Under the pieces are notes generated by a model. It saw only the letters and a list, made by a program, of their open reading frames with translations, had not been told where the DNA came from and made no database searches. A program made the position numbers and the translations under genes. DNA of 48,595 nucleotides, taken from contig JAKFYF010000046.1 of assembly GCA_021731005.1 (NCBI GenBank), forward strand, positions 1-48,595. Reading direction: 5' to 3'. Shown piece by piece: positions 1-48,595 of this stretch. The stretch comes from Hyphomonadaceae bacterium. Its GTDB lineage: Bacteria; Pseudomonadota; Alphaproteobacteria; Caulobacterales; Aquidulcibacteraceae. Position 1 is the stretch's first letter; each line of letters opens with the position of its first letter.

Positions 1-203
1 AACAGGGGGAGGCGCTTTCGCTCGCTCAAATTCTTCCCTTGGCGCTCAGAGCTGTTCCGGGCGAAGTCCTGGAGGTCGAGATCGAACGCGAGCATGGGCG
101 GCTGGTCTATGAGATCGAGATTCTTGCGCGCAGCGGCCGAGTTCGCAAAGTGACGCTCGATGCGCGCACTGGCGCGCTCCTTGAAGTGGAAGACGAGCAC
201 TGA
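1..203 (+). CDS. PepSY-domain protein, C-terminal part (cut by window edge)
   Basis: Reading frame starting at base 3 gives about 66 residues that match, almost base for base, the C-terminal two thirds of the intact PepSY gene at 4195-4521, ending in a very acidic tail (VEDEH). The start and signal peptide lie outside the window. The stop codon overlaps the ATG of the response regulator (TGATG), so the two are translationally coupled. PepSY domains are small exported modules thought to bind or inhibit envelope partners; next to a two-component system it is probably an accessory or sensor-modulating protein. It is the first gene of the left copy of a tandem duplication. Partial, but the homology to the second copy leaves little doubt. 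Confidence 0.85.
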   Translation, partial: QGEALSLAQILPLALRAVPGEVLEVEIEREHGRLVYEIEILARSGRVRKVTLDARTGALLEVEDEH

Positions 204-862
204 TGCGGGTTCTGTTGGTTGAGGACGATGCCGACATCGCCGCCGATGTCGCCCTGGCGCTTCAGGGTGCGGGCTTTCTGGTTGAACAGGCCTCTGACGG
301 CGAAGCGGCATGGTTCTTGGGCGACACCGAGGATTTTGACGCCGTCATTCTTGACCTTGGGCTGCCCAAACTCGATGGACTGAGCGTACTCAGGAAGTGG
401 CGCGCGGCGGGCCGATCGTTCCCTGTCCTTATCCTTTCAGCGCGCGGCGCTTGGACCGAAAAGGTCGACGGCATTGAAGCCGGCGCCGACGATTATCTCG
501 GCAAGCCATTTGAACTGGGCGAGTTGACTGCGCGCGTGCGTGCGCTGGTGCGCCGCGCGGGCGGGCACGCAGCGCCCGTTCTGACGGTGGGCAGGCTAAC
601 CTTGGATACGCGGCGCATGAGCGTGGCGGTCGATGGCGCGCCGCAAAAGGTGTCGCCGCTGGAATACCGGATGCTCGATTATCTGGCGCACCAACAGGGC
701 CGCGTTGTCTCCGCTGGTGAATTGGCTGAACACTTGCACGGCGCCGATGGCGCCGCGGACGCCAACGCCATCGAAGCGTTGGTTGCGCGGCTGCGTCGAA
801 AGATTGGCGCCGATATCATCCAGACGCGTCGCGGTTTTGGTTATGCGTTGAGCGAGACATGA
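203..862 (+). CDS. OmpR/PhoP-type response regulator, copy 1
   Basis: 219 residues. The N-terminal receiver domain has the acidic pocket (VEDDAD), the phospho-acceptor Asp51 (VILDLGLPKLDG), the Thr/Ser position in LILSARG and the Lys in GKPF. The C-terminal winged helix (about 125-219) is of OmpR/PhoB type and ends in TRRGFGYAL. By family knowledge it is phosphorylated by the kinase encoded just downstream and binds direct repeats in promoters. Its ATG overlaps the PepSY stop and its own stop overlaps the kinase start (ATGA), so the three genes form one tight operon. It differs from copy 2 (4521-5180) at about 11 of 219 residues by manual comparison. Confidence 0.95.
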   Translation: MRVLLVEDDADIAADVALALQGAGFLVEQASDGEAAWFLGDTEDFDAVILDLGLPKLDGLSVLRKWRAAGRSFPVLILSARGAWTEKVDGIEAGADDYLGKPFELGELTARVRALVRRAGGHAAPVLTVGRLTLDTRRMSVAVDGAPQKVSPLEYRMLDYLAHQQGRVVSAGELAEHLHGADGAADANAIEALVARLRRKIGADIIQTRRGFGYALSET

Positions 863-2181
863 TCGCGCGTTCGCTGCGCTGGCGTTTGCTTGCGGGCGCT
901 GGCGCCGCAATTTTTGCCGCTCTGGCGCTCGCCTGGCTCGCGATGGGCTATTTGTTTGAGGCGCATGTTGAGCGCGGTGTCGAAGCCAATCTGATTCAGC
1001 ACGGGCGGGACATTGTAGCCGGGCTCACGCGCGGAGCGGACGGCCAGCTCGCGCTAGAGCCCGAACCATTTGATCCGCGCTTTGAACGACCATCCAGCGG
1101 GCTTTACTGGCAAGTCAGCGAAGACGCCGTCGCGCTCCGTTCCCGCTCCTTGTGGGACGAGACGATGGCGCCCAATGAGAGCGTCAGCGCCAATGCTTGG
1201 ACAACAGGCGACGTGGCCGGGCCGTTTGGCCAGAAGCTCGTGTTTGTCGCACGGGAGGTTTCACTCGGCGCAGACGGCGCGCCCATTCTTGTGATGCTGG
1301 GCGCAGATCATGAGGCGGTCACCGCGGCGCGCGGCGACTTTTCGCGCGATCTTGGACTCTTCCTTCTGCTGTTGTGGGCGGTGTTGGCGGGCGCGGCCTG
1401 GGCGCAGGTGCAACTTGGGCTGAGGCCGCTTAGCGATGTACGCGCGGCGCTCGGCGAGATGCAGGGTCATGCGGGCGCCCGCCTGCAGGAAGAGGACTAT
1501 CCAACCGAGGTCGCGCCGCTCGCGCAGGCAATCAATGCGCTCGCCGACGCGCGTCAGCGCGATACTGAACTCGCGCGCCGCCGCGCGAGTGACCTCGCGC
1601 ATTCTCTCAAGACGCCGCTGGCCGCGCTTGCGGCGCAGACAAGGCGCGCGCGCGAGGCGGGCGCAACGGACGCCGCCGATGGTCTTGACCGCGCCGTAGA
1701 AGCGGCGCGCGGCGCGGTCGAGCGGGAGCTCACACGCACCCGAATCGCCGCCGAGCACGACGCCGAGTGCAAAGCCGCGGGCCCAATCATCGATCGGCTG
1801 ATCGCGGTTGTTGAGCGCACAGAAGCGGGACAGAGACTGACTTTCGAGAATGCTATGGGCGACACAATCCTTCCGCTTGGCGAGGTCGCGCTTATGGAAC
1901 TCGCCGGCCCGTTGATGGAGAATGCAGCCCGCTATGCGCGCTTGCTCGTGCGCATCAGCGGAGATCGCACGCGCTTTTGCGTCGAGGATGACGGGCCCGG
2001 TCTAAGTGACGCCGAGATCGCTGAAGCGCTTGGTCGCGGCAAGCGATTGGACGAGGCGGCGCAGGGTGACGGTCTCGGCCTCGCCATCGCGCGCGACGTC
2101 GCGGAGGTGAGTGGCGGCGTCCTCACACTGGACCGGTCGCCCTTGGGCGGTCTGCGCGCTCAGGTGCAATGGAGGGACTGA
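859..2181 (+). CDS. PhoQ-like sensor histidine kinase, copy 1
   Basis: 440 residues. There is an N-terminal membrane helix (about 9-30), a periplasmic sensor segment of about 130 residues, a second helix (about 160-182), then the kinase core. The phospho-acceptor is His248 in SDLAHSLKTPLAAL; this HSLKTPL form of the H-box is typical of PhoQ-type kinases. N box NAARYA, G1 box EDDGPGLSD and G2 box GDGLGLAIARD of the HATPase are all intact. It starts 4 bases inside the regulator gene. About 33 of 440 residues differ from copy 2, and many of the changes lie in the periplasmic and linker parts, which could mean divergence in ligand sensing while the output stays alike. Confidence 0.95.
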   Translation: MIARSLRWRLLAGAGAAIFAALALAWLAMGYLFEAHVERGVEANLIQHGRDIVAGLTRGADGQLALEPEPFDPRFERPSSGLYWQVSEDAVALRSRSLWDETMAPNESVSANAWTTGDVAGPFGQKLVFVAREVSLGADGAPILVMLGADHEAVTAARGDFSRDLGLFLLLLWAVLAGAAWAQVQLGLRPLSDVRAALGEMQGHAGARLQEEDYPTEVAPLAQAINALADARQRDTELARRRASDLAHSLKTPLAALAAQTRRAREAGATDAADGLDRAVEAARGAVERELTRTRIAAEHDAECKAAGPIIDRLIAVVERTEAGQRLTFENAMGDTILPLGEVALMELAGPLMENAARYARLLVRISGDRTRFCVEDDGPGLSDAEIAEALGRGKRLDEAAQGDGLGLAIARDVAEVSGGVLTLDRSPLGGLRAQVQWRD

Positions 2182-2227
2182 CTGGTTGCGGCGAGATCGC
2201 GTCGTTGCCGTTTGCGCTAAGTCGCTG

Positions 2228-4194: not shown

Positions 4195-4521
4195 ATGGGT
4201 CTCAATCGCCGCCTTCTCATTGTGGCTGCCTTTGCTGCCGCGTTGGTCCCGCCCGGGGCCGATGCGAAGCGTGGGCGCGGGCGTGGCGGGGACCATGACG
4301 AAGCGCGCGAAGCCTATGAACAGGGGGAGGCGCTTTCGCTCGCTCAAATTCTTCCCTTGGCGCTCAGAGCTGTTCCGGGCGAAGTCCTGGAGGTCGAGAT
4401 CGAACGCGAGCATGGGCGGCTGGTCTATGAGATCGAGATTCTTGCTCGTAGCGGCCGAGTTCGCAAAGTCACGCTCGATGCGCGCACTGGCGCGCTCCTT
4501 GATGTAGAAGACGAGCACTGA
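4195..4521 (+). CDS. PepSY-domain exported protein (intact copy)
   Basis: 108 residues from ATG 4195, preceded by GGAAGG at good spacing; the upstream ORF extension lacks support. Signal peptide RRLLIVAAFAAALVPPGADA is followed by a short basic stretch (KRGRGRGGDHDEAR) and one PepSY module that ends DARTGALLDVEDEH. It overlaps the following response regulator by one base (TGATG). It is the intact version of the fragment at 1-203. As an exported small domain co-transcribed with a sensor kinase, it may modulate the kinase's periplasmic domain; this is inference. Confidence 0.85.
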   Translation: MGLNRRLLIVAAFAAALVPPGADAKRGRGRGGDHDEAREAYEQGEALSLAQILPLALRAVPGEVLEVEIEREHGRLVYEIEILARSGRVRKVTLDARTGALLDVEDEH

Positions 4522-5180
4522 TGCGGATCTTGTTGGTTGAGGACGATGCTGACATCGCCGCCGATGTCGTCCTGGCGCTTCAGGACGCGGGCTTTCTGGT
4601 CGAGCAGGCCTCTGACGGCGAAGCGGCATGGTTCTTGGGCGACACCGAGGACTTTGACGCCGTCATTCTGGACCTTGGGTTGCCCAAGCTCGATGGGCTG
4701 AGCGTGCTCAAGAAGTGGCGCGCGGCTCACCGATCTTTTCCAGTGCTCATCCTGTCGGCGCGCGGCGCCTGGACCGAAAAGGTCGATGGCATCGAAGCCG
4801 GCGCCGACGACTATCTCGGCAAGCCATTTGAACTGGGCGAGTTGACTGCGCGCGTGCGCGCGCTGGTGCGCCGCGCAGGCGGGCACGTGGCGGCCGTGCT
4901 GACGGTAGGCAAGCTCACCTTGGACACGCGGCGCATGAGCGTGGCGGTCAGTGGCGCGCTACAAAAGGTGTCGCCACTTGAATACCGGATGCTCGATTAT
5001 CTGGCGCACCAAAAGGGCCGCGTTGTCTCCGCCGGTGAATTGGCTGAACACTTGCACGGCGCCGATGGCGCCGCGGACGCCAACGCCATCGAGGCTTTGG
5101 TTGCGCGCCTGCGCCGAAAGATTGGCGCTGATATCATTCAGACGCGCCGCGGTTTTGGCTATGCGTTGAGCGAGACATGA
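4521..5180 (+). CDS. OmpR/PhoP-type response regulator, copy 2
   Basis: 219 residues, same architecture as copy 1: receiver with Asp51 and an OmpR-type winged helix. Substitutions against copy 1 are scattered (for example A17V, G22D, and GGHAAP to GGHVAA in the linker), and the DNA-recognition helix region (NAIEALVARLRRKIG) is identical. The two regulators therefore probably bind the same sites and could cross-talk. It overlaps the kinase start by 4 bases (ATGA). Confidence 0.95.
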   Translation: MRILLVEDDADIAADVVLALQDAGFLVEQASDGEAAWFLGDTEDFDAVILDLGLPKLDGLSVLKKWRAAHRSFPVLILSARGAWTEKVDGIEAGADDYLGKPFELGELTARVRALVRRAGGHVAAVLTVGKLTLDTRRMSVAVSGALQKVSPLEYRMLDYLAHQKGRVVSAGELAEHLHGADGAADANAIEALVARLRRKIGADIIQTRRGFGYALSET

Positions 5181-6499
5181 TCGCGCGTTCGCTGCGCTGG
5201 CGTCTGCTTGCGGGCGCTGGCGCCGCAATTTTCGCCGCTCTGGCGCTCGCCTGGCTTGCGATGGGCTATCTGTTCGAAGCGCATGTCGAACGCGGCCTCG
5301 AAGCCAATCTGATTCAACATGGGCGGGACATTGTATCCGGGCTCACCCGCGGAGCGGACGGCCAGCTTGCGCTAGAGCTCGAGCCATTCGATCCGCGCTT
5401 TGATCGACCGTCCAGCGGGCTTTACTGGCAAGTCAGCGAAGGCGCCGCCGCGCTCCGTTCCCGCTCTTTGTGGGACGAGGCGATGGCGCCCAATGAGAGC
5501 GTCAGCGTCAATGTTTGGACAACAGGCGATGTTGGCGGGCCGTTTGGCCAGAAGCTCGTGTTCGTTGCACGGGAGGTCTCGTTGGGCGAGGGCGGGGCGC
5601 CTATACTTGTGATGCTGGGCGCAGATCACGCGGCGGTCACCGCGGCGCGCGGCGACTTTTCGCGCGATCTTGGACTCTTCCTTGTGCTGTTGTGGGCGGT
5701 GTTGGCGGGCGCGGCCTGGGCGCAGGTGCAACTTGGGTTGAGGCCGCTTGGAGATGTACGCTCGGCGCTTGGCGACATGCAGGGTCATGCGGGCGCCCGC
5801 CTGCATGAAGCGGACTATCCAACCGAAGTCGCGCCACTCGCGCAGGCAATCAATGCACTCGCCGATGCCCGTCAGCGCGATACCGAACAAGCGCGCCGCC
5901 GCGCGAGTGATCTCGCGCATTCTCTCAAGACGCCGCTGGCCGCGCTTGCTGCGCAGACGAGGCGCGCGCGCGAAGCGGGCGCGACTGACGCTGCCGATGG
6001 TCTTGATCGCGCCATCGAAGCGGCACGCGGCGCGGTCGAGCGGGAGCTCACCCGCACGCGTATCGCTGCGGAGCACGATGCAGAGCACAAGTCCGCAGGG
6101 CCGATCATCGATCGGCTGATCGCGGTTGTTGAACGCACGGAAGCGGGACAGAGACTGAGTTTTGTGAATGCTCTGGGCGGGACAATTCTTCCGCTTGGGG
6201 AGGTGGCGCTCATGGAGCTCGCCGGCCCGTTGCTGGAGAATGCAGCCCGCTATGCGCGCTTGCTCGTGCGCATCAGCGGAGATCGCACGCGCTTTTGTGT
6301 CGAGGATGACGGGCCCGGTCTAAGTGACGCCGAGATCGCCCAAGCGCTTGGTCGCGGCAAGCGATTGGACGAGTCAGCGCAGGGTGACGGTCTCGGCCTC
6401 GCCATCGCGCGCGACGTCGCGGAGGTGAGTGGCGGTGTGCTCACGCTGGACCGGTCGCCCTTGGGCGGTCTGCGCGCTCAGTTGCAATGGAGGGAGTGA
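5177..6499 (+). CDS. PhoQ-like sensor histidine kinase, copy 2
   Basis: 440 residues, collinear with copy 1 with no indels: two membrane helices, periplasmic domain, AHSLKTPLAAL H-box, and N, G1 and G2 boxes (NAARYA, DDGPGLSD, GDGLGLAIARD). About 33 residues differ from copy 1. Both copies keep all catalytic residues, so neither looks like a pseudogene. It ends within 60 bases of a repeat copy and of a truncated methyltransferase-like fragment, which probably marks the right junction of the duplicated block. Confidence 0.95.
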   Translation: MIARSLRWRLLAGAGAAIFAALALAWLAMGYLFEAHVERGLEANLIQHGRDIVSGLTRGADGQLALELEPFDPRFDRPSSGLYWQVSEGAAALRSRSLWDEAMAPNESVSVNVWTTGDVGGPFGQKLVFVAREVSLGEGGAPILVMLGADHAAVTAARGDFSRDLGLFLVLLWAVLAGAAWAQVQLGLRPLGDVRSALGDMQGHAGARLHEADYPTEVAPLAQAINALADARQRDTEQARRRASDLAHSLKTPLAALAAQTRRAREAGATDAADGLDRAIEAARGAVERELTRTRIAAEHDAEHKSAGPIIDRLIAVVERTEAGQRLSFVNALGGTILPLGEVALMELAGPLLENAARYARLLVRISGDRTRFCVEDDGPGLSDAEIAQALGRGKRLDESAQGDGLGLAIARDVAEVSGGVLTLDRSPLGGLRAQLQWRE

Positions 6500-6523
6500 C
6501 TGGTTGCAGCGATGGTGAGCCGA

Positions 6524-41394: not shown

Positions 41395-41974
41395 ATGAAG
41401 CGTCCCCTGGCCATTCGCGCGCTGCTTGCAGTGCTGTTGCTCGCCGGTTGCGCGTCGGGCCCAAGCGCCGATCGCCTTGAGACGCAGGAAATCCTCGGCA
41501 CTTGGTCTGGGCACGTCGCGACGACCTATGTGCCAAATTCTTCAGTGCAGCGCGAGGGTAGCCGCACAAGTGGTGGCTGGACGCTCTACCCCGATGGCTC
41601 GGTCATCACGAGCCGCGGGGTAGCTGGGCGGTGGCGGCTAAATGGCGATCGGCTTTATCTCTTGTGGGATGCTTCCGTTTGGGGGCCAAACACGCGGGGC
41701 CCTCGCAGAATTCACGCCGACGTGATTGGAGAGTCTCTCACGGCTGCGTGGAGTCAGATGAACACGACCCAACGCGAACGCTACGCCGTGAGAGCCGAAT
41801 TCCGTCGCTTGGCGCCGCCGCCTGGAATGTGTTCGCCGCCAGATGCGCCGCCCGAGGCAGTACGCCACGCTGTTCTCATCAGAACAATTGACGGCGGCAC
41901 CGAGGACATCCGCGACGTCCGGTTCTCTGGCGACGGAGAGCGTCTTGCAGTCGGGTCCAACGATGCGCGCGTCC

Positions 41975-41982
41975 GTCTATTT
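41975..41982 (+). repeat. Target-site duplication of IS66, left copy (GTCTATTT)
   Basis: GTCTATTT immediately precedes the left end of the element (GTACGCAT) and recurs immediately after the right end at 44483-44490. An 8-bp duplicate is the standard size for the IS66 family. Confidence 0.9.
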
Positions 41983-42010
41983 GTACGCATACGCCAAATA
42001 CCGCGGTTGA

Positions 42011-43624
42011 TCAGGCGGAGGCCTGCGGCTTCCAGTTCCAGGGCAGAAGTTCGGCTAGCCGCGATGCTGGCAGAGCGGCGATGCGGGCGAGCACGTCGGC
42101 GAGCCAGGCCTGCGGATCGACGTCATTGAGTTTGGCGGTTTGCAGCAGCGTGTAGATTGCCGCCGCGCGCTCGCCGCCGCGATCTGAGCCGGCGAAGGTC
42201 CAGTTGCGCCGCCCCACGGCCAGCGGGCGGATCATTCTTTCCGCCGCGTTGTTGCTGAGGCAGGCCCGCCCATCGTCGAGGAAGCGCGTGAAGGCAGGCC
42301 AGCGTTTGAGCATGTAATCCATGGCTTTAGCGATGGCGCTTTTTGCCGACACGCGCGCCCGCGCGGCAATCATCCAGGCATGGAGCGCCTCGACCAGCGG
42401 CTTGATCCGCTCGTGGCGCACCGCGCGGCGTTGTTCCGCTGGCAGACCATTGATCTCGCGCTCGATGTCGAAGATGGCGTCGATTTGCTTCACCGCCTCG
42501 ACGGCGATCGGCGAGAGCGTTATGCGCGCATCGCGCGCCAAAGACCTTTTCTTGCGGGCGACATCGGCCAGCTCGAAAAATTTGCGCCGGCCATGAGCCC
42601 AGCATGCGGCCTCAATGATGGCGTTAGGTTTTCGCTCTGGCGCATAAAGCGCGGCGAATCCGGCGAAGGCGTCGGCCTGCATCAAGCCGGTCCAATCGGC
42701 CAAATGCGATCGGGGGTGGGCGCCGCCGCGATCGGGCGAATAATAATAGATCGCCGCCGCCGGGTCCTTGCCGCCAAACGGTTTGTCGTCGCGCACATAG
42801 GTCCATAATCGGCCGGTGCGGGTCTTGCCTTTCGCCAGCACCGGGACCGGCGTGTCATCAGCGTGGATGCGTTCGGCTGCGAAGACGTGATCGCGGATCA
42901 GCTGCGTCAGCGGTTCAAGCGCGGCAGCGCACGCGCCCACCCAATCGGCCATAGTCGACACTTCGATCGCCACGCCCTCGTTCGCGAAAGCCTCACTCTG
43001 GCGGTTGAGCGGCAAATGCAAATCGTATTTGCCGGCCAGGATCATGGCGAGCAGGCTGGGTCCAGCCCGACCGCGTGCAATCACATGGAAAGGCGCTGGC
43101 GGCTGCATGATCTTTTCGCACGCCCGGCAGCTCCAGCGCTCGCGCACGGTTTGCCGCACGAAGAATTTGCGTGGGATGATCTCCAAAGTCTCGGTAATAT
43201 CTTCGCCAAGCTTGCAGAGCTTTTTCGAGCCGCAGCACGGGCATGATGTCGGCGATGCAATCACCATCCGCTCGCGCGGCAGATGCGCTGGCAGCGGCCC
43301 GCGCTTGGGCTGCCGACGCGACCCCGCAGGCTGGATCGGCGCGCCTTGCGCGGCGGCGGCCTGCGTCTCGGCCGCCATACTATTTTGCACGATGTCGCCT
43401 TCAATGTCTTCCAGCGACAATTGCAGCTGATCGATCAGATGGGCGCGGCGCTCCGAAGATTGACCGAATTGGGCGCGTTGCAGGCGCAGGAGCTCAATCT
43501 GAAGATTGGCGAGGAGCGCTTCCGCGCCCTTGTGGGCGGCGGCCATTGCCGCAATCATCGCCCGGCTTTCCAGCACCAGCGCCTTCAGCGCATCGATGTC
43601 ATCAGGGAGATCGCCGGCCTGCAT
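42011..43624 (-). CDS. tnpC: IS66 transposase TnpC
   Basis: 537 residues. An N-terminal helical leucine-rich region (DDIDALKALVLESRAMIAAMAAAHKG, LLANLQIELLRLQRAQFGQSSE), a zinc-finger region (SCPCCGSKKLCKLGED, WSCRACEKI), and the DDE integrase-like IS66 core (HADDTPVPVLAKGKTRTGRLW, EAACWAHGRRKFFELAD, NNAAERMIRPLAVGRRNWTFAGSDRGG). It ends with the small C-terminal IS66 domain (LLQTAKLNDVDPQAWLADVLARI). It executes strand transfer for the element. Full length for the family. Confidence 0.96.
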   Translation of the reverse strand: MQAGDLPDDIDALKALVLESRAMIAAMAAAHKGAEALLANLQIELLRLQRAQFGQSSERRAHLIDQLQLSLEDIEGDIVQNSMAAETQAAAAQGAPIQPAGSRRQPKRGPLPAHLPRERMVIASPTSCPCCGSKKLCKLGEDITETLEIIPRKFFVRQTVRERWSCRACEKIMQPPAPFHVIARGRAGPSLLAMILAGKYDLHLPLNRQSEAFANEGVAIEVSTMADWVGACAAALEPLTQLIRDHVFAAERIHADDTPVPVLAKGKTRTGRLWTYVRDDKPFGGKDPAAAIYYYSPDRGGAHPRSHLADWTGLMQADAFAGFAALYAPERKPNAIIEAACWAHGRRKFFELADVARKKRSLARDARITLSPIAVEAVKQIDAIFDIEREINGLPAEQRRAVRHERIKPLVEALHAWMIAARARVSAKSAIAKAMDYMLKRWPAFTRFLDDGRACLSNNAAERMIRPLAVGRRNWTFAGSDRGGERAAAIYTLLQTAKLNDVDPQAWLADVLARIAALPASRLAELLPWNWKPQASA

Positions 43625-43695
43625 CGCAAGCGATTAAACCATGCTTTGCGGCTTCTGAGGCGCCCCCGCGTACAAGCTGATTCAATCGGTCGCAC

Positions 43696-44043
43696 TTAGC
43701 CGGCGGCTTCTGGCCGCCAGGTTTCGCGCGGCGCCCTCCAGTCGAGCGCCTCCAGCAACATCGACAATTGCGCCGGACTGATCATGGCGCTGCCCTCGGT
43801 CGCATTCGGCCATTGAAAGCGCCCCTTCTCCAGGCGCTTGGAGAACAGGCAAGCGCCCTGACCGTCATGCCAAATCGCTTTCAAAAGATCGCCGCGGCGG
43901 CCGCGAAAAATGAACACATGGCCGCTGTGGGGATCGAGCTTGAGCGTCTCCTGGATTTGCAACGCAAGCCCATCCATGCCGCGGCGCATGTCGGTGCGCC
44001 CCAGCGCCAACCAGATCTTCGTGCCCGCTGGAAACTGCATCAT
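43696..44043 (-). CDS. tnpB: IS66 accessory protein TnpB
   Basis: 115 residues, the ORF2 (Orf2_IS66) type: KIWLALGRTDMRRGMDGLALQIQ, SGHVFIFRGRRGDLLKAIWHDGQGACLFSKRLEKGRF, ISPAQLSMLLEALDWR. Its start overlaps the tnpA stop (ATGA) and 71 bases separate it from tnpC. Required for transposition in the family, precise role not known. Confidence 0.95.
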   Translation of the reverse strand: MMQFPAGTKIWLALGRTDMRRGMDGLALQIQETLKLDPHSGHVFIFRGRRGDLLKAIWHDGQGACLFSKRLEKGRFQWPNATEGSAMISPAQLSMLLEALDWRAPRETWRPEAAG

Positions 44044-44423
44044 CGCCGCGCCAGCGCTGTGACGATCGCCGCCGCCAGATCGGCGCCGATGGCGCCGGTG
44101 ATGCGCAAACGCGCCCCGCCCGCCAATTCAAGCTCCAGCGTGGAAGCGCTCTCCGCCGCGACCGCCAGCGGCAGAAAACGCGGCGGCGGCGGCGCGGGCG
44201 GAGCGGGCGCAGCGCCAAATCCCAGCTCCTCGCGCATCTGCTTGCGCCAGGCGAACAACAGGCTGGTAGCCACCCCATTGCGCCGCGCCACGGCGTTGAC
44301 CTTGGCCCCCGGCGCGAACGTCTCCAGCACCAATTCCTGCTTGCGCTCCGGCGTCCAGCGCTGCCGCGCGCCAACGGAGATCACTTCAAGACGCGTCACA
44401 CGACTAGGCGTATCACTAGGCAT
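44040..44423 (-). CDS. tnpA: IS66 accessory protein TnpA
   Basis: 127 residues if ATG 44423 is used. The N-terminal helix-turn-helix (RQRWTPERKQELVLETFAPGAKVNAVARRNGVATSLLFAWRKQ) is of the transposase IS3/IS911/IS66-OrfA type; then comes a Pro-rich linker and a C-terminal beta part. An inverted repeat covers the start codon. The HTH protein probably binds the element ends. Confidence 0.93.
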   Translation of the reverse strand: MPSDTPSRVTRLEVISVGARQRWTPERKQELVLETFAPGAKVNAVARRNGVATSLLFAWRKQMREELGFGAAPAPPAPPPPRFLPLAVAAESASTLELELAGGARLRITGAIGADLAAAIVTALARR

Positions 44424-44431
44424 AAGCCTAG
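44416..44431. promoter_or_regulatory. Inverted repeat CTAGGC-ATAA-GCCTAG over the tnpA start
   Basis: A 6-bp stem with a 4-base loop that includes the tnpA start codon (44421-44423); related CTAGGC copies stand on both sides (44403-44409, 44429-44434). It may reduce translation of the transposase or be a TnpA binding site. Confidence 0.45.
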
Positions 44432-44482
44432 GCGTGCGCCTCAAACCTCAGCCCAACAAGGCGGCGCCCGCCGGGTGCGTAC

Positions 44483-44490
44483 GTCTATTT
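44483..44490 (+). repeat. Target-site duplication of IS66, right copy (GTCTATTT)
   Basis: Identical to 41975-41982; the WD40 reading frame resumes at the next base with GAT. Confidence 0.9.
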
Positions 44491-45234
44491 GATGTGGCAA
44501 GCGGCCGTTTGCTCATGCGATCGGAAGTCACTGGGGGTCCTATTTGGAATGTCGCTTTCGCGCGAGATGATCACCACGTCGTGAGCTTCGGCCCCGATGG
44601 CGGAGCGTTCGGGTACTATCTGTGGGATCCCGCGACCGCCGAAGGCGACCGCACCACGGACTACGATGCGATCTGGAACGTGGCTGAAAGTACCTTTCCA
44701 GAATCCAGAGACCAGACTCTGCGATACGAGCGCGGCGCTCTTTACAGTCGCGCGACGGGAGCCGTCGTAGCGGAGATTCCCGGGGCAAATGGAGCGGTTA
44801 CCAGCGCCGTGTTCTCATACAGCGGCAGCGCGTTGGTTGTTCGCCACGGGTATGAAACGCGCGTCTTTGATGGACGCACAGGAGCACCATTATCGCGCCT
44901 TTGCGCCACGACGAACGGCTCGAACGCGGTTCGGGTTACAGCGAACGGGGCTTATGTGGCTACACAGGAATGTGGCGCTGCAAACAGCCCCCATGTCGTT
45001 GCTGTATGGCATGCGGCTTCGGGCGCGATCGTCGCCAGGCTGCGCGCGCCATACAACTCGCTAGAGGCGCAGGATATCAGTCCGAATGCAGATCTGCTTG
45101 CGACTGGCTCCGAGGATGGGCGCGTTCGCATCTGGCGCCTGGCGCCTGGGCGTGGACCCATTCCGCTGATCGGACCATCGCTAACGCGTTAAAGTGCCCA
45201 AAGCGCTGCTTGTTTGAGCGGCTTCGAATGACCG

Positions 45235-45458: not shown

Positions 45459-48209
45459 ATGGGCGGCATCTTTATAAGTCATTCGAGCAAGAACAGCGCA
45501 GAGGCCGAGCGGCTGCGCGACTGGCTCGAAACCCAAGGCTGGGGGCGCTCGCAAGTTTTCCTGGACTTGCAGGACCTGAAGTCCGGCGATAGCTGGCGCG
45601 ATGTCCTCAATGCGATGGGCGACAAGGAAGCCGTTATCGTCTGCCTATCGAACGAGTGGCTCGGCTCGCATGAATGCGTGCGCGAGTTCACCCAAGCCCA
45701 AGAACGTGGCAAACCGATCCTGCCGATCTTCGTCGCGGCTGTGACCGCGCCGATACCTCGCTTCATCACCGATCTTCAAATCGGCGACGCGACGAAGGAC
45801 GACGGCTTCCAAAGCTTGCGCGATGGGCTCCTATCCAAACGCATAACGCCACAGTCCTTTCCCTGGCCGCCGCCCAATGAACCCACTCGCTCGGTCTATC
45901 GCGGTTTGCAGGCGCTCGACGTTCAGGACGCTGCGATCTTCTTTGGTCGCGATGCCGATATCGCACGCGGCCTCGATGAACTGCGAAGATTGCGCAACGG
46001 CGCGCCACAACGGCTACTGGCAATCCTGGGCGCTTCTGGCGCGGGCAAGTCGTCGTTCCTGCGCGCGGGTCTGATCGCACGCTTGAAGCGTGACGAAGAA
46101 AACTTCCTGGTGCTGCCGGTCGTACGGCCCGAACGCGCCGCGGTGAGCGGCCCGCAGGGATTAACCGCGAGCATTTCAACAGCGCAGGGCCGTGCTGTTT
46201 CGTGGGCCGGTGGTGTCGCGAACTTGGCGCAAGCCTTCGCCGATCTGCGCAAGCCCGTGATGCAGCGATTGACACGCAACGCTGAAGCGGCGCGAGAGAC
46301 TCATACTACGAAGCCGCCGACGATCATTCTGCCGCTCGATCAGGCGGAAGAATTATTTGGCGTGGAGAATACGGAGCGCGCCGCGTTCTGTGAGGCAGTA
46401 GAAGACGCCATCGCTCAGGATGGTAATGCCGTGCTTGTCGCAACTATCAGAACAGACACGTATGAGTCCCTACAGAACGGGTGGATGCGCGACCGTCAGA
46501 CGCCGTTCACGCTGCCTGCAATTGCTGCCGGCTCCTTCCAAGAAATCATCGAGGGTCCGGCGCGATTGGCGAAGCCGCCTTTGAAAATCGAGCCAGAGCT
46601 AACTCAGCAGTTGCTGAGCGATCTCAACGCTGCTGACGCGCTGCCGTTGTTGGCGTTCACTTTGGAACGGCTGCGAACCCAACTCGGCCAGCAGGGCAGA
46701 CTCTCGCTCGCCGACTATCGCGACAAACTGGGCGGCCTTTCCGGCGCGATCCAGTCGGCGGTGGATGCAGTGCTCGGCGCGGCGCCCAGCAAAGAGAAAC
46801 TGGCGCTGGCGCGGCGGCTGTTTGTGCCGGCTTTGGTGCAAGTGGATCAAGACGGGGTGAAGCGCCGCGTCGCGCGACGGGCCGACATCCCAGCGGATGC
46901 CCAAAAGCTAGCCGATCAGTTCGTCGATCAGAGGCTTTTGGTGGCGGATGCGGGCACGATTGAAGTCGCGCACGAAGCTATTCTGCGACAATGGCCAGCC
47001 TTGGCCTCATGGATCCGTGATGAATACGACGCGCTGAAGTTAGTTGGCGATCTGCAGGCTGCGACTTCGGAATGGGTTCAAGAGGGGCGCCCCGACAACT
47101 GGATGGCCCACAGTGGCGACAAGGTCGCGGACGCAGAGACGTTGCTCGAAAGGGCGGACTATTCGAAATCTTTGAATAGTGACGTGCGCGATTATGTTGC
47201 CGCTTGGAGGCGCTCAGTGCATGCAGCATTGGCGCGAGAAAGAAAGGCGCTGAGAGCTCAACGAAGAGCGCTTACAGCCCTCGTCGCGGTTGTTGGCATT
47301 CTCGTCATTGGCCTGTCTGTTATGGCCTTCGTCAATTTTCGTTCGGTCAGCGCGCTTGCTGTTGCTTACCTGGATTACGGGCGGTTCGCTGTCTCATCAT
47401 CTTCATTGGCGGCTGCGCGTCCCGGAACAACGTTTCAGGACTGCCGCGAAGACAGCGCTCTTTGCCCGGTCATGGTCATCGCCCCGGAGGGTCAGTTCCA
47501 AATGGGCTCAGCGGCTGACGATGAAGGGGCATCACTCGATGAGGGACCGACACGCGCGGTTTCGATTCAACGGTTTGCTGTCTCGCAACGTGAAATAACA
47601 TTTGCGCAGTGGCAGGCATGTGTTGCCGGTGGCGGTTGTTCCCGCAACCCCGCCCCGTCAGATAATGGCTGGGGACGCGGCAATCGACCTGTGTTTGTTT
47701 CTTGGGAAGATGCGCAGGAATATGTCGCTTGGCTGTCTCAAATGACGGGGCAACATTATCGCCTTCTCACCGAGGCGGAATGGGAATACGCGGCGCGCGG
47801 CGTCACTTCGGCTGACGATCCGCGTAACGGCGAGAGCTGGAGTTTCGGCAACGACGAAAGCCAACTGGGCGACTTCGCATGGTTCGCCTCGAACTCAGAA
47901 AATCAAACCTATCCCGTTGGGATGAAACGCGCCAATCCATTCGGCCTCTACGACATGCACGGCAATGTGTATGAGTGGGTGCAGGATTGTTACGCGGCCT
48001 ACGATCCCGCTAGGTTAGATGGCTCGGCTGTGGAGTCAGATGCTGAAGGACCGGATGTTTCCGATAGCGGAACGTCCTGCTCCTCCCGCGTGCTTCGCGG
48101 CGGTTCGTGGTCCAGCAACCCACAGGACCTCCGATCCGCGAGCCGCGTCAGGCTCAACCCAGATTACCGGGACAGCGCTATCGGGTTCCGCGTCGCCAGG
48201 ACCCTTTAG
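45459..48209 (+). CDS. TIR-STAND ATPase-FGE-fold membrane sensor protein
   Basis: 916 residues from ATG 45459, where the TIR domain starts directly. TIR (1-125): GGIFISHSSKNSAEAERL, VFLDLQDLKSGDSW, and the helix SNEWLGSHECVREF with Glu76 at the NADase catalytic place. STAND-type P-loop ATPase (about 155-560): Walker A GASGAGKSS at 191-199, Walker B ILPLDQAEELF with Asp294, then a winged-helix-like end (DAGTIEVAHEAILRQWPAL). Basic stretch and membrane helix (about 603-630). FGE-sulfatase/C-type-lectin fold (669-916): FQMGS, ITFAQWQACV, PVFVSWEDAQEYVAWLS, RLLTEAEWEYAARG, NPFGLYDMHGNVYEWVQDC, RVLRGGSW. The two catalytic Cys of true formylglycine enzymes are missing at GSWSSN, so this end probably binds rather than oxidises. 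The positive-inside rule puts TIR and ATPase in the cytosol and the FGE fold outside. Immune-type sensor is my inference. Confidence 0.9.
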   Translation: MGGIFISHSSKNSAEAERLRDWLETQGWGRSQVFLDLQDLKSGDSWRDVLNAMGDKEAVIVCLSNEWLGSHECVREFTQAQERGKPILPIFVAAVTAPIPRFITDLQIGDATKDDGFQSLRDGLLSKRITPQSFPWPPPNEPTRSVYRGLQALDVQDAAIFFGRDADIARGLDELRRLRNGAPQRLLAILGASGAGKSSFLRAGLIARLKRDEENFLVLPVVRPERAAVSGPQGLTASISTAQGRAVSWAGGVANLAQAFADLRKPVMQRLTRNAEAARETHTTKPPTIILPLDQAEELFGVENTERAAFCEAVEDAIAQDGNAVLVATIRTDTYESLQNGWMRDRQTPFTLPAIAAGSFQEIIEGPARLAKPPLKIEPELTQQLLSDLNAADALPLLAFTLERLRTQLGQQGRLSLADYRDKLGGLSGAIQSAVDAVLGAAPSKEKLALARRLFVPALVQVDQDGVKRRVARRADIPADAQKLADQFVDQRLLVADAGTIEVAHEAILRQWPALASWIRDEYDALKLVGDLQAATSEWVQEGRPDNWMAHSGDKVADAETLLERADYSKSLNSDVRDYVAAWRRSVHAALARERKALRAQRRALTALVAVVGILVIGLSVMAFVNFRSVSALAVAYLDYGRFAVSSSSLAAARPGTTFQDCREDSALCPVMVIAPEGQFQMGSAADDEGASLDEGPTRAVSIQRFAVSQREITFAQWQACVAGGGCSRNPAPSDNGWGRGNRPVFVSWEDAQEYVAWLSQMTGQHYRLLTEAEWEYAARGVTSADDPRNGESWSFGNDESQLGDFAWFASNSENQTYPVGMKRANPFGLYDMHGNVYEWVQDCYAAYDPARLDGSAVESDAEGPDVSDSGTSCSSRVLRGGSWSSNPQDLRSASRVRLNPDYRDSAIGFRVARTL
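48087..48206 (+). other. Candidate DGR variable region (C-terminal 40 codons)
   Basis: Known DGR target proteins with an FGE fold end in RGGSW, a run of Asn-rich positions, R-A-R blocks and GFRVAR; template repeats carry AAC there. Here the codons at those places are TCC, AGC, AAC, GAC, AGC, GTC, CTC, AAC, TAC, GAC, AGC and GCT: eleven of twelve keep the final C, and all follow from AAC or AAT by changes at A only. Fixed codons between them (CCA, CAG, CGA, AGG, CCA, GAT, CGG) would be unchanged. No template repeat or reverse transcriptase is visible in the rest of the window. Confidence 0.65.
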
Positions 48210-48595
48210 AATCGTTTCGCTTTAGCGCTTTACCTCCTGCATCCTGAACTCTTGGCCCTTTACAGGGTCTGGGGTGTAAGCCCTGCAGGTTCTTACTTCT
48301 CGACGAAGCCTAGTTGCGTTCTGGGCATCTCGAACGACTGTTTCCCAGCGCTTCCCAGTCATTCGTGATGCGCGATGATGTGGCAGCAATCGGCGAAAGG
48401 CTTCCGGTGCGATGGCGGCGGTGTATGTCCGTTGTCGGGCGGATTCTCGCCGGTCCCTTGGAGCGTCGGCTTCTGGGATGAAACGCCGAAAACGCGCGGG
48501 CGGCATGATCGGCAGGGGTAGGGGGCGATCACGCCGTAGGTGGGCCGGTTACTGCCATTCGTCCTTGGATCCGCGCGCCGCGCCTTGCCCCTGAC
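48210..48595. other. Unassigned end of window
   Basis: 386 bases after the TIR-STAND gene. The leftward ORF 48222-48506 and rightward ORF 48412-48594 are Arg-rich, lack ribosome sites and match nothing I know; in particular I see neither an Avd-like helical protein nor a second copy of the variable region. Confidence 0.45.
48256..48296. promoter_or_regulatory. Two small hairpins downstream of the variable region
   Basis: CCCT-TTAC-AGGG (48256-48267) and GTAAG...CTTAC (48276-48296) around the palindrome CCTGCAGG. In the model DGR a hairpin next to the variable region helps homing, so a role is possible; they could also be a weak terminator. Confidence 0.3.

What the first reader, a model, noticed from the sequence alone, without database searches (positions are those of the whole stretch)
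48087..48206. Diversity-generating retroelement signature at the end of a TIR-STAND protein
Seen: the last 40 codons have the layout RGGSW / SSN / PQDL / RSAS / RVRLN / PDYRDSA / GFRVAR. In DGR template repeats the matching string is Asn-rich (AAC codons). Here eleven of the twelve matching codons are NNC, and every difference from AAC/AAT falls on an A. Between them, codons without A at the relevant place are as in typical templates. Known: DGRs mutate adenines during reverse transcription and often target this C-type-lectin (FGE) fold at the very C terminus. Inference: the ligand-binding face of this immune-type receptor is diversified, a bacterial analogue of a somatically variable receptor. 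The template/RT would be beyond the right edge or elsewhere in the genome.
Basis: partly seen in the sequence, partly recalled or inferred. Interest (0 to 1): 0.95.

Follow-up and report, generated by a model that had tools for sequence, protein, structure and literature searches.

The report
Orphan DGR target in TIR-nSTAND1 receptor
The last 40 codons of this bacterial immune-type receptor carry the fingerprint of a mutation machine that rewrites a gene's tail from an adenine-rich template, but the template and its reverse transcriptase are not in the assembled genome, so the tail is either served by a missing piece or a leftover of a lost machine.

Summary
The gene at 45459-48209 is TIR - nSTAND1 - FGE/C-type-lectin, and its tail looks like a diversity-generating-retroelement (DGR) variable repeat (VR). 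I aligned it to real template repeats (TRs) found in relatives. At the 11 template-Asn codons it is NNY 11/11 and NNC 10/11 (gene background 0.52, 0.33). It has 9/51 non-adenine mismatches to the nearest foreign TR, like genuine VRs against foreign TRs; most other FGE tails have 12-34. A 70%-identical orthologue matches at 24/29 constant tail positions but only 2/11 template-Asn positions. The noncoding 3' flank resembles only flanks of VR-type tails. DGR ancestry is therefore well supported.

What fails: the 91%-complete MAG has no DGR reverse transcriptase (its only RT is a retron-TIR) and no TR, and the 3' flank lacks the GC hairpin that most relatives keep. The contig ends 386 bp past the stop. 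Current diversification is unproven; a relic is about as likely as a cassette missing from the assembly. DGR-diversified nSTAND1-FGE sensors, some with TIR effectors, are already published (Dore 2024; Kaur 2020). Verdict: real, a new member of a known kind, orphaned in this assembly.

The parts
45459..48209 (+). TIR - nSTAND1 - FGE receptor gene, 916 aa
   Evidence: ORF; Pfam
45468..45815 (+). TIR_2 domain, likely NADase effector; keeps the SxxW..S..C..E-type segment (SNEWLGSHECVREF)
   Evidence: PF13676 E=5e-17; catalytic role is general knowledge, not tested
45897..47096 (+). nSTAND1 NTPase with P-loop GASGAGKSS
   Evidence: PF20703 E=3e-74
47463..48200 (+). FGE/C-type-lectin-fold domain
   Evidence: PF03781 E=5e-49; model pLDDT 86.4, pTM 0.88; nearest solved folds PvdO and then TvpA, a DGR variable protein
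48096..48203 (+). DGR-type variable repeat; the 11 template-Asn codons start at 48111, 48114, 48117, 48126, 48141, 48147, 48153, 48165, 48171, 48174 and 48177
   Evidence: 9/51 non-A and 19/30 A mismatches to the nearest foreign TR; NNY 11/11, NNC 10/11; 2/11 identical to the orthologue at these positions against 24/29 elsewhere in the tail
48226..48267 (+). VR-type noncoding 3' flank GCGCTTTACCTCCTGCATCCTGAACTCTTGGCCCTTTACAGGG (linear tract kept, hairpin absent)
   Evidence: local alignment score 25-28 to six VR-type flanks, at most 18 to all other flanks; no hairpin of 6 bp or more; fold z = 0

Best explanation
The gene encodes a TIR - nSTAND1 - FGE/C-type-lectin receptor whose last ~36 codons are a DGR variable repeat. 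An adenine-rich template RNA was copied by a DGR reverse transcriptase with errors at adenines, and the cDNA replaced the gene's 3' end, randomising about 11 AAY codons on the lectin's ligand face. Most likely working (inferred from published STAND and TIR biology): ligand binding by the lectin releases the NTPase to oligomerise, and the TIR domain then consumes NAD+ to stop the infected cell. Shown here: domain layout, template-type codon signature, hypervariability against the orthologue, DGR-type 3' flank, and RT+TR+VR sets in relatives of the same family and order. Inferred: that a DGR wrote this very tail, that the variable residues face a ligand, and the signalling steps. Not shown: that diversification still happens. 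RT and TR are absent from the assembly and the target-site hairpin is gone, so the VR is an orphan in this assembly.
For: Non-A mismatches to the nearest foreign TR: window 9/51; genuine VRs against foreign TRs 1, 8, 9, 9, 12, 12 and 15; TR against TR 7-13; other FGE tails mostly 12-34. NNY 11/11 and NNC 10/11, p = 8e-4 and 1.3e-4. Constant codons match the DGR core at nucleotide level: in the order-wide search all four genomes with a DGR RT of this type also ring for the core pattern with 1-2 mismatches. Orthologue L093: tail 24/29 identical at constant positions, 2/11 at template-Asn positions, Fisher p = 3e-4. The 3' noncoding flank matches six of the VR-type flanks and none of 40 other FGE flanks, Fisher p = 2e-4. 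DGR targets of the same family are TIR...FGE proteins: G014 with adjacent TR and RT, and G024. C-type-lectin fold with TvpA among the closest solved structures. Published precedent: nSTAND1/NACHT-FGE DGR targets, some with TIR (PMC10907252).
Against: No DGR RT at E<=0.01 and no TR in the 91%-complete MAG. No GC hairpin after the VR, which is required in BPP-1 (PMC3240598). The orthologue L093 has ordinary codons (NNY 7/11) and its 100%-complete genome has no RT. The grouping of tails into VR-type and ordinary was drawn after seeing the data, and some VR-type tails lie in RT-less genomes.
Confidence: 0.84

Rival explanations
1. Relic (sub-case of the best explanation): the tail was written by a DGR in the past, but the lineage has lost RT and TR. 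The VR is now an ordinary, slowly drifting ligand-binding tail.
For: No RT or TR in the assembly; hairpin lost; none of the other 29 genomes of the genus has a DGR RT of this type; orthologue already reverted to ordinary codons; other VR-type tails in RT-less near-complete genomes, e.g. G012 and G030.
Against: Non-A distance to TRs is not larger than the TR-TR distance, so no decay is measurable; NNC still 10/11; the assembly is incomplete and the contig ends 386 bp downstream.
Confidence: 0.46
2. Live cassette missed by the assembly (the other sub-case): TR and RT lie beyond the right edge or on an unassembled or unbinned contig and still diversify the tail, in cis or in trans.
For: Contig ends 386 bp past the stop (0.8% chance in a contig of that length); VR-type genes in G007, G037 and G014:C171 also end 193-563 bp from a contig edge; the DGR of G024 is broken over several contigs; G027 has its VR on a different contig from TR and RT yet matches that TR at 53/54 non-A sites; Dore et al. 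saw RT/TR missing from a reference but present in structural variants.
Against: The MAG is about 91% complete, so absence by chance is about 9% a priori; hairpin missing; the last 355 bp of the contig hold no RT or TR remnant. The edge distances in short contigs are not significant one by one.
Confidence: 0.38
3. Ordinary FGE-domain tail with no DGR history; the resemblance comes from family consensus plus C-ending codon preference.
For: The amino-acid frame is generic FGE consensus; N, D and Y codons are NNY by necessity; no RT or TR in the genome.
Against: NNC is only 33% in this gene; ordinary FGE tails of the same genus have NNY 3-9 and mostly 16 or more non-A mismatches; the noncoding 3' flank match cannot come from protein consensus.
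Confidence: 0.12
4. Mis-binned contig: C2 belongs to another organism, so the absence of RT and TR from this MAG says nothing.
For: Reported contamination is 4.8%.
Against: The best full-length relative by far (70% overall, TIR 95%) is in a genome of the same genus.
Confidence: 0.04

Closest known systems
DGR-diversified nSTAND1/NACHT-CLec(FGE) antigen-sensor targets, DGR clade 5D (Dore et al. 2024, PMC10907252)
   Same: Central STAND NTPase, C-terminal FGE/CLec with the VR, N-terminal effector; TIR effectors are mentioned there
   Different: Here neither RT nor TR is assembled; the paper's text does not mention Alphaproteobacteria; no population variation measured
DGR-linked NTP-dependent conflict systems (Kaur et al. 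2020, PMC7159879)
   Same: FGE-type ('FGS') variable effector/sensor domain in a conflict protein linked to a DGR; TIR and STAND modules
   Different: Those are MoxR-vWA or iSTAND ternary systems; here a single three-domain protein was found and no ternary partner was looked for
TIR-FGE DGR targets of G014:C44 and G024:C90 (L148, L151)
   Same: TIR N terminus, FGE C terminus, VR signature; same taxonomic family; RT and TR present in the genome
   Different: About 570 aa, without a detected nSTAND1 domain
TvpA, Treponema denticola DGR variable protein (PDB 2y3c)
   Same: C-type-lectin/FGE fold with the tail aligned to its VR region
   Different: No TIR or STAND domain; 26% identity
PvdO (PDB 5hha)
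   Same: Closest solved fold and sequence (E = 2.6e-33; Foldseek E = 1.5e-22)
   Different: Stand-alone protein; not a DGR target as far as I know

Membership tests
Diversity-generating retroelement, target gene / variable repeat | VR differs from a TR almost only at template adenines | tested here: inconclusive
   No own TR exists in the assembly. Against foreign TRs 19/30 A and 9/51 non-A mismatches, as for genuine VRs against foreign TRs
Diversity-generating retroelement, target gene / variable repeat | AAY-derived codons (NNY) at template-Asn positions | tested here: met
   11/11 NNY, 10/11 NNC
Diversity-generating retroelement, target gene / variable repeat | VR at the C terminus of a C-type-lectin-fold domain | tested here: met
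   PF03781, AlphaFold model and Foldseek match to TvpA
Diversity-generating retroelement, target gene / variable repeat | GC-rich hairpin just downstream of the VR | tested here: not met
   No stem of 6 bp or more with a loop of 12 or less in 170 nt; most VR-type relatives have one, G027's VR has only a distant weak one
Diversity-generating retroelement, complete system | Template repeat in the genome | tested here: not met
   assembly about 91% complete
Diversity-generating retroelement, complete system | DGR-type reverse transcriptase (GxxxSQ motif) | tested here: not met
   Only RT is a retron-TIR with GxxxSP; DGR RT profile finds nothing at E<=0.01; assembly about 91% complete
Diversity-generating retroelement, complete system | Avd/accessory protein | not tested
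   Not searched
Diversity-generating retroelement, complete system | Adenine-specific variation in the population | not testable with these tools
   Needs reads or many strains
nSTAND1 immune-type sensor (TIR effector, C-terminal sensor) | TIR + nSTAND1 + C-terminal sensor domain in one protein | tested here: met
nSTAND1 immune-type sensor (TIR effector, C-terminal sensor) | Anti-phage or NADase function | not testable with these tools
   Needs experiment
Formylglycine-generating enzyme | Catalytic Cys pair in the C-terminal segment | tested here: not met
   No Cys in 48087-48206 (sequence); the Cys requirement is general knowledge of FGE

The most novel reading that the evidence does not exclude
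VR-type tails without an RT in the genome recur in this family (G000, G007, G012, G030, G037), some with intact target hairpins in near-complete genomes. Such sensors could be diversified in trans by a DGR carried on a mobile element or by a subpopulation, i.e. a shared mutator serving resident immune receptors.
Probability: 0.1. Interest if true: 0.75.

Novelty: new member of a known kind. Interest (0 to 1): 0.45.

Why it matters
If live, this is a bacterial TIR-STAND receptor whose sensor face is actively randomised, in a lineage little discussed for DGRs. If a relic, it suggests that such receptors outlive their mutator and that a fixed allele can be kept as an ordinary innate sensor. Either way, orphan VRs are invisible to RT-centred DGR surveys; the codon and 3'-flank test used here could find them.

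Tried and rejected
(1) The only RT in the genome (C8) as DGR RT: rejected, it is a retron-TIR type XII protein, E = 2e-162. (2) TR in the own genome by pattern, blastn and TR-specific pattern: none. (3) Predicted own TR core in 385 genomes of the class and in IMG/VR: no hits. (4) RT or TR remnants in the last 355 bp of the contig: only chance-level matches. (5) 3' hairpin: not found. (6) The amino-acid frame alone as evidence: rejected, it is generic FGE consensus. (7) Contig-edge clustering as proof of a missing cassette: too weak. (8) A first codon-by-codon comparison with L093 was out of register by one codon and was not used; one search replaces it.

Full report
WHAT IS THERE. The window is contig C2 of a 373-contig, 91%-complete MAG and ends at 48595. 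The gene at 45459-48209 encodes TIR_2, nSTAND1 and FGE-sulfatase domains in that order. The quoted tail is at 48087-48206. One genome of the same order (G122) carries a DGR RT 100% identical to that of the Parvularculaceae MAG OFTM378, and the next full-length homologue by name is a Hyphomonas MAG, so the host is probably a member of Caulobacterales (inference).

SEARCH FOR THE MACHINE. The only reverse transcriptase in the assembly is a retron-TIR type XII. A DGR RT profile built from three relatives finds nothing at E<=0.01 in the own genome, while it finds G027 at 1e-221. The FGE gene is the only one in the genome. No near copy of the tail exists, and a TR-specific pattern that rings in each of the three RT-bearing genomes of the family is silent here.

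CONTROLS THAT RESCUE THE OBSERVATION. Relatives supply real DGRs. L020 has two TRs and two VRs differing almost only at A. G014, G024, G027 and G122 have RT and TR. Against these TRs the window's tail has 9 of 51 non-A mismatches and 19 of 30 A mismatches. Genuine VRs measured fairly, against TRs of other genomes, have 1, 8, 9, 9, 12, 12 and 15, the last being a VR that has also decayed against its own TR. TRs differ from one another by 7-13. Other FGE tails mostly have 12-34. At the 11 codons that are Asn in TRs the window is NNY 11/11 and NNC 10/11 over a gene background of 0.52 and 0.33; ordinary FGE tails of the same genus have NNY 3-9. The line between the two groups was drawn after seeing the data, and eight tails not paired here with their own TR (L018, L130, L102, L149, L122, L131, L015, L110) fall on the VR side; some of these lie in genomes where no RT was found.

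THE ORTHOLOGUE. L093 (G034) is the only close full-length relative. Identity is TIR 95%, nSTAND1 73%, FGE before the tail 68%, constant tail positions 24/29, template-Asn positions 2/11 (Fisher p = 3e-4). Its own tail has ordinary codons (NNY 7/11, 18 non-A mismatches), so the signature is not a property of the gene family as such.

THE 3' FLANK. Beyond the stop, the window's noncoding flank matches (score 25-28) the flanks of six VR-type genes: three in genomes or cassettes with a DGR RT (L020 twice, G024) and three orphans (G007, G030, G037). The other 49 flanks score at most 18. Such a match has no protein-level cause. However, the GC hairpin that follows this tract in most of the others is absent in the window. 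In BPP-1 that hairpin is required for homing (PMC3240598). The VR of G027, nearly perfect against its TR, also lacks a nearby one, so the absence weighs against activity without settling it.

LIVE OR RELIC. For relic: no RT or TR, no hairpin, no DGR RT of this type in the other 29 genomes of the genus. For live: the contig ends 386 bp past the stop, VR-type genes of some other fragmented genomes also end near contig edges, the DGR of G024 is broken over several contigs, and G027 shows a VR on a different contig from its TR and RT. Dore et al. report loci lacking RT or TR in the reference but present in structural variants. I put relic and live at about 46 and 38 percent.

STRUCTURE AND MECHANISM. 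The FGE domain models well (pLDDT 86, pTM 0.88). Its nearest solved folds are PvdO and then TvpA, a DGR variable protein. The tail has no cysteine, so it is more likely a binder than a formylglycine-generating enzyme. The inferred mechanism is sensor lectin, STAND switch, TIR effector; no step of signalling was tested.

COMPARISON WITH WHAT IS KNOWN. nSTAND1-FGE DGR targets, some with TIR effectors, are described by Dore et al. 2024 (PMC10907252). DGRs in conflict systems are described by Kaur et al. 2020 (PMC7159879). Roux et al. 2021 note that their contig-based mining misses remote targets (PMC8144416). The window gene works like such a target and meets the codon, fold and architecture tests for a VR, but not the hairpin test. 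It does not meet the tests for a complete DGR, because TR and RT were searched for and not found.

Noticed in passing
L001 (G000:C8:19711-20337): The genome's only reverse transcriptase is a retron-TIR fusion (PADLOC RT-TIR_XII, E=2e-162), a separate candidate defence system.
   Followed up: partly
G007:C185, G030:C60, G037:C78, G012:C2 (L122/L166, L130/L167, L131/L165, L110): VR-type FGE tails in genomes without a detectable DGR RT, three of them with intact 7-13 bp target hairpins.
   Followed up: partly
L151 (G024:C90) against L148 (G014:C44) and L152 (G024:C140): The G024 VR matches the TR of another genus (G014) with 1 non-A mismatch but the TR on its own contig C140 with 9, which suggests a second TR or transfer of a DGR between genera.
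   Followed up: no
L144 (G014:C44), L145 (G024:C90): DGR RT reading frames with one in-frame TAG each: decay, or assembly error.
   Followed up: no
L019 8640 and 10311: A VR with 13/54 non-A mismatches to its neighbouring TR although RT and TR are present: a decayed VR beside an intact cassette.
   Followed up: no
window 41395-45192: An IS66-type transposase gene set (42011-44444, minus strand) seems to split a repeat-type lipoprotein gene just upstream of the receptor; no terminal inverted repeats were found by a simple scan.
   Followed up: partly
window 133-2194 and 4451-6512: Near-tandem duplicate of a response regulator plus sensor kinase pair, 91.8% identical over 2062 bp.
   Followed up: no
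window 45459-48206 against L093: Mosaic conservation: TIR 95%, nSTAND1 73%, middle segment 38%, FGE 68% identical to the orthologue.
   Followed up: no
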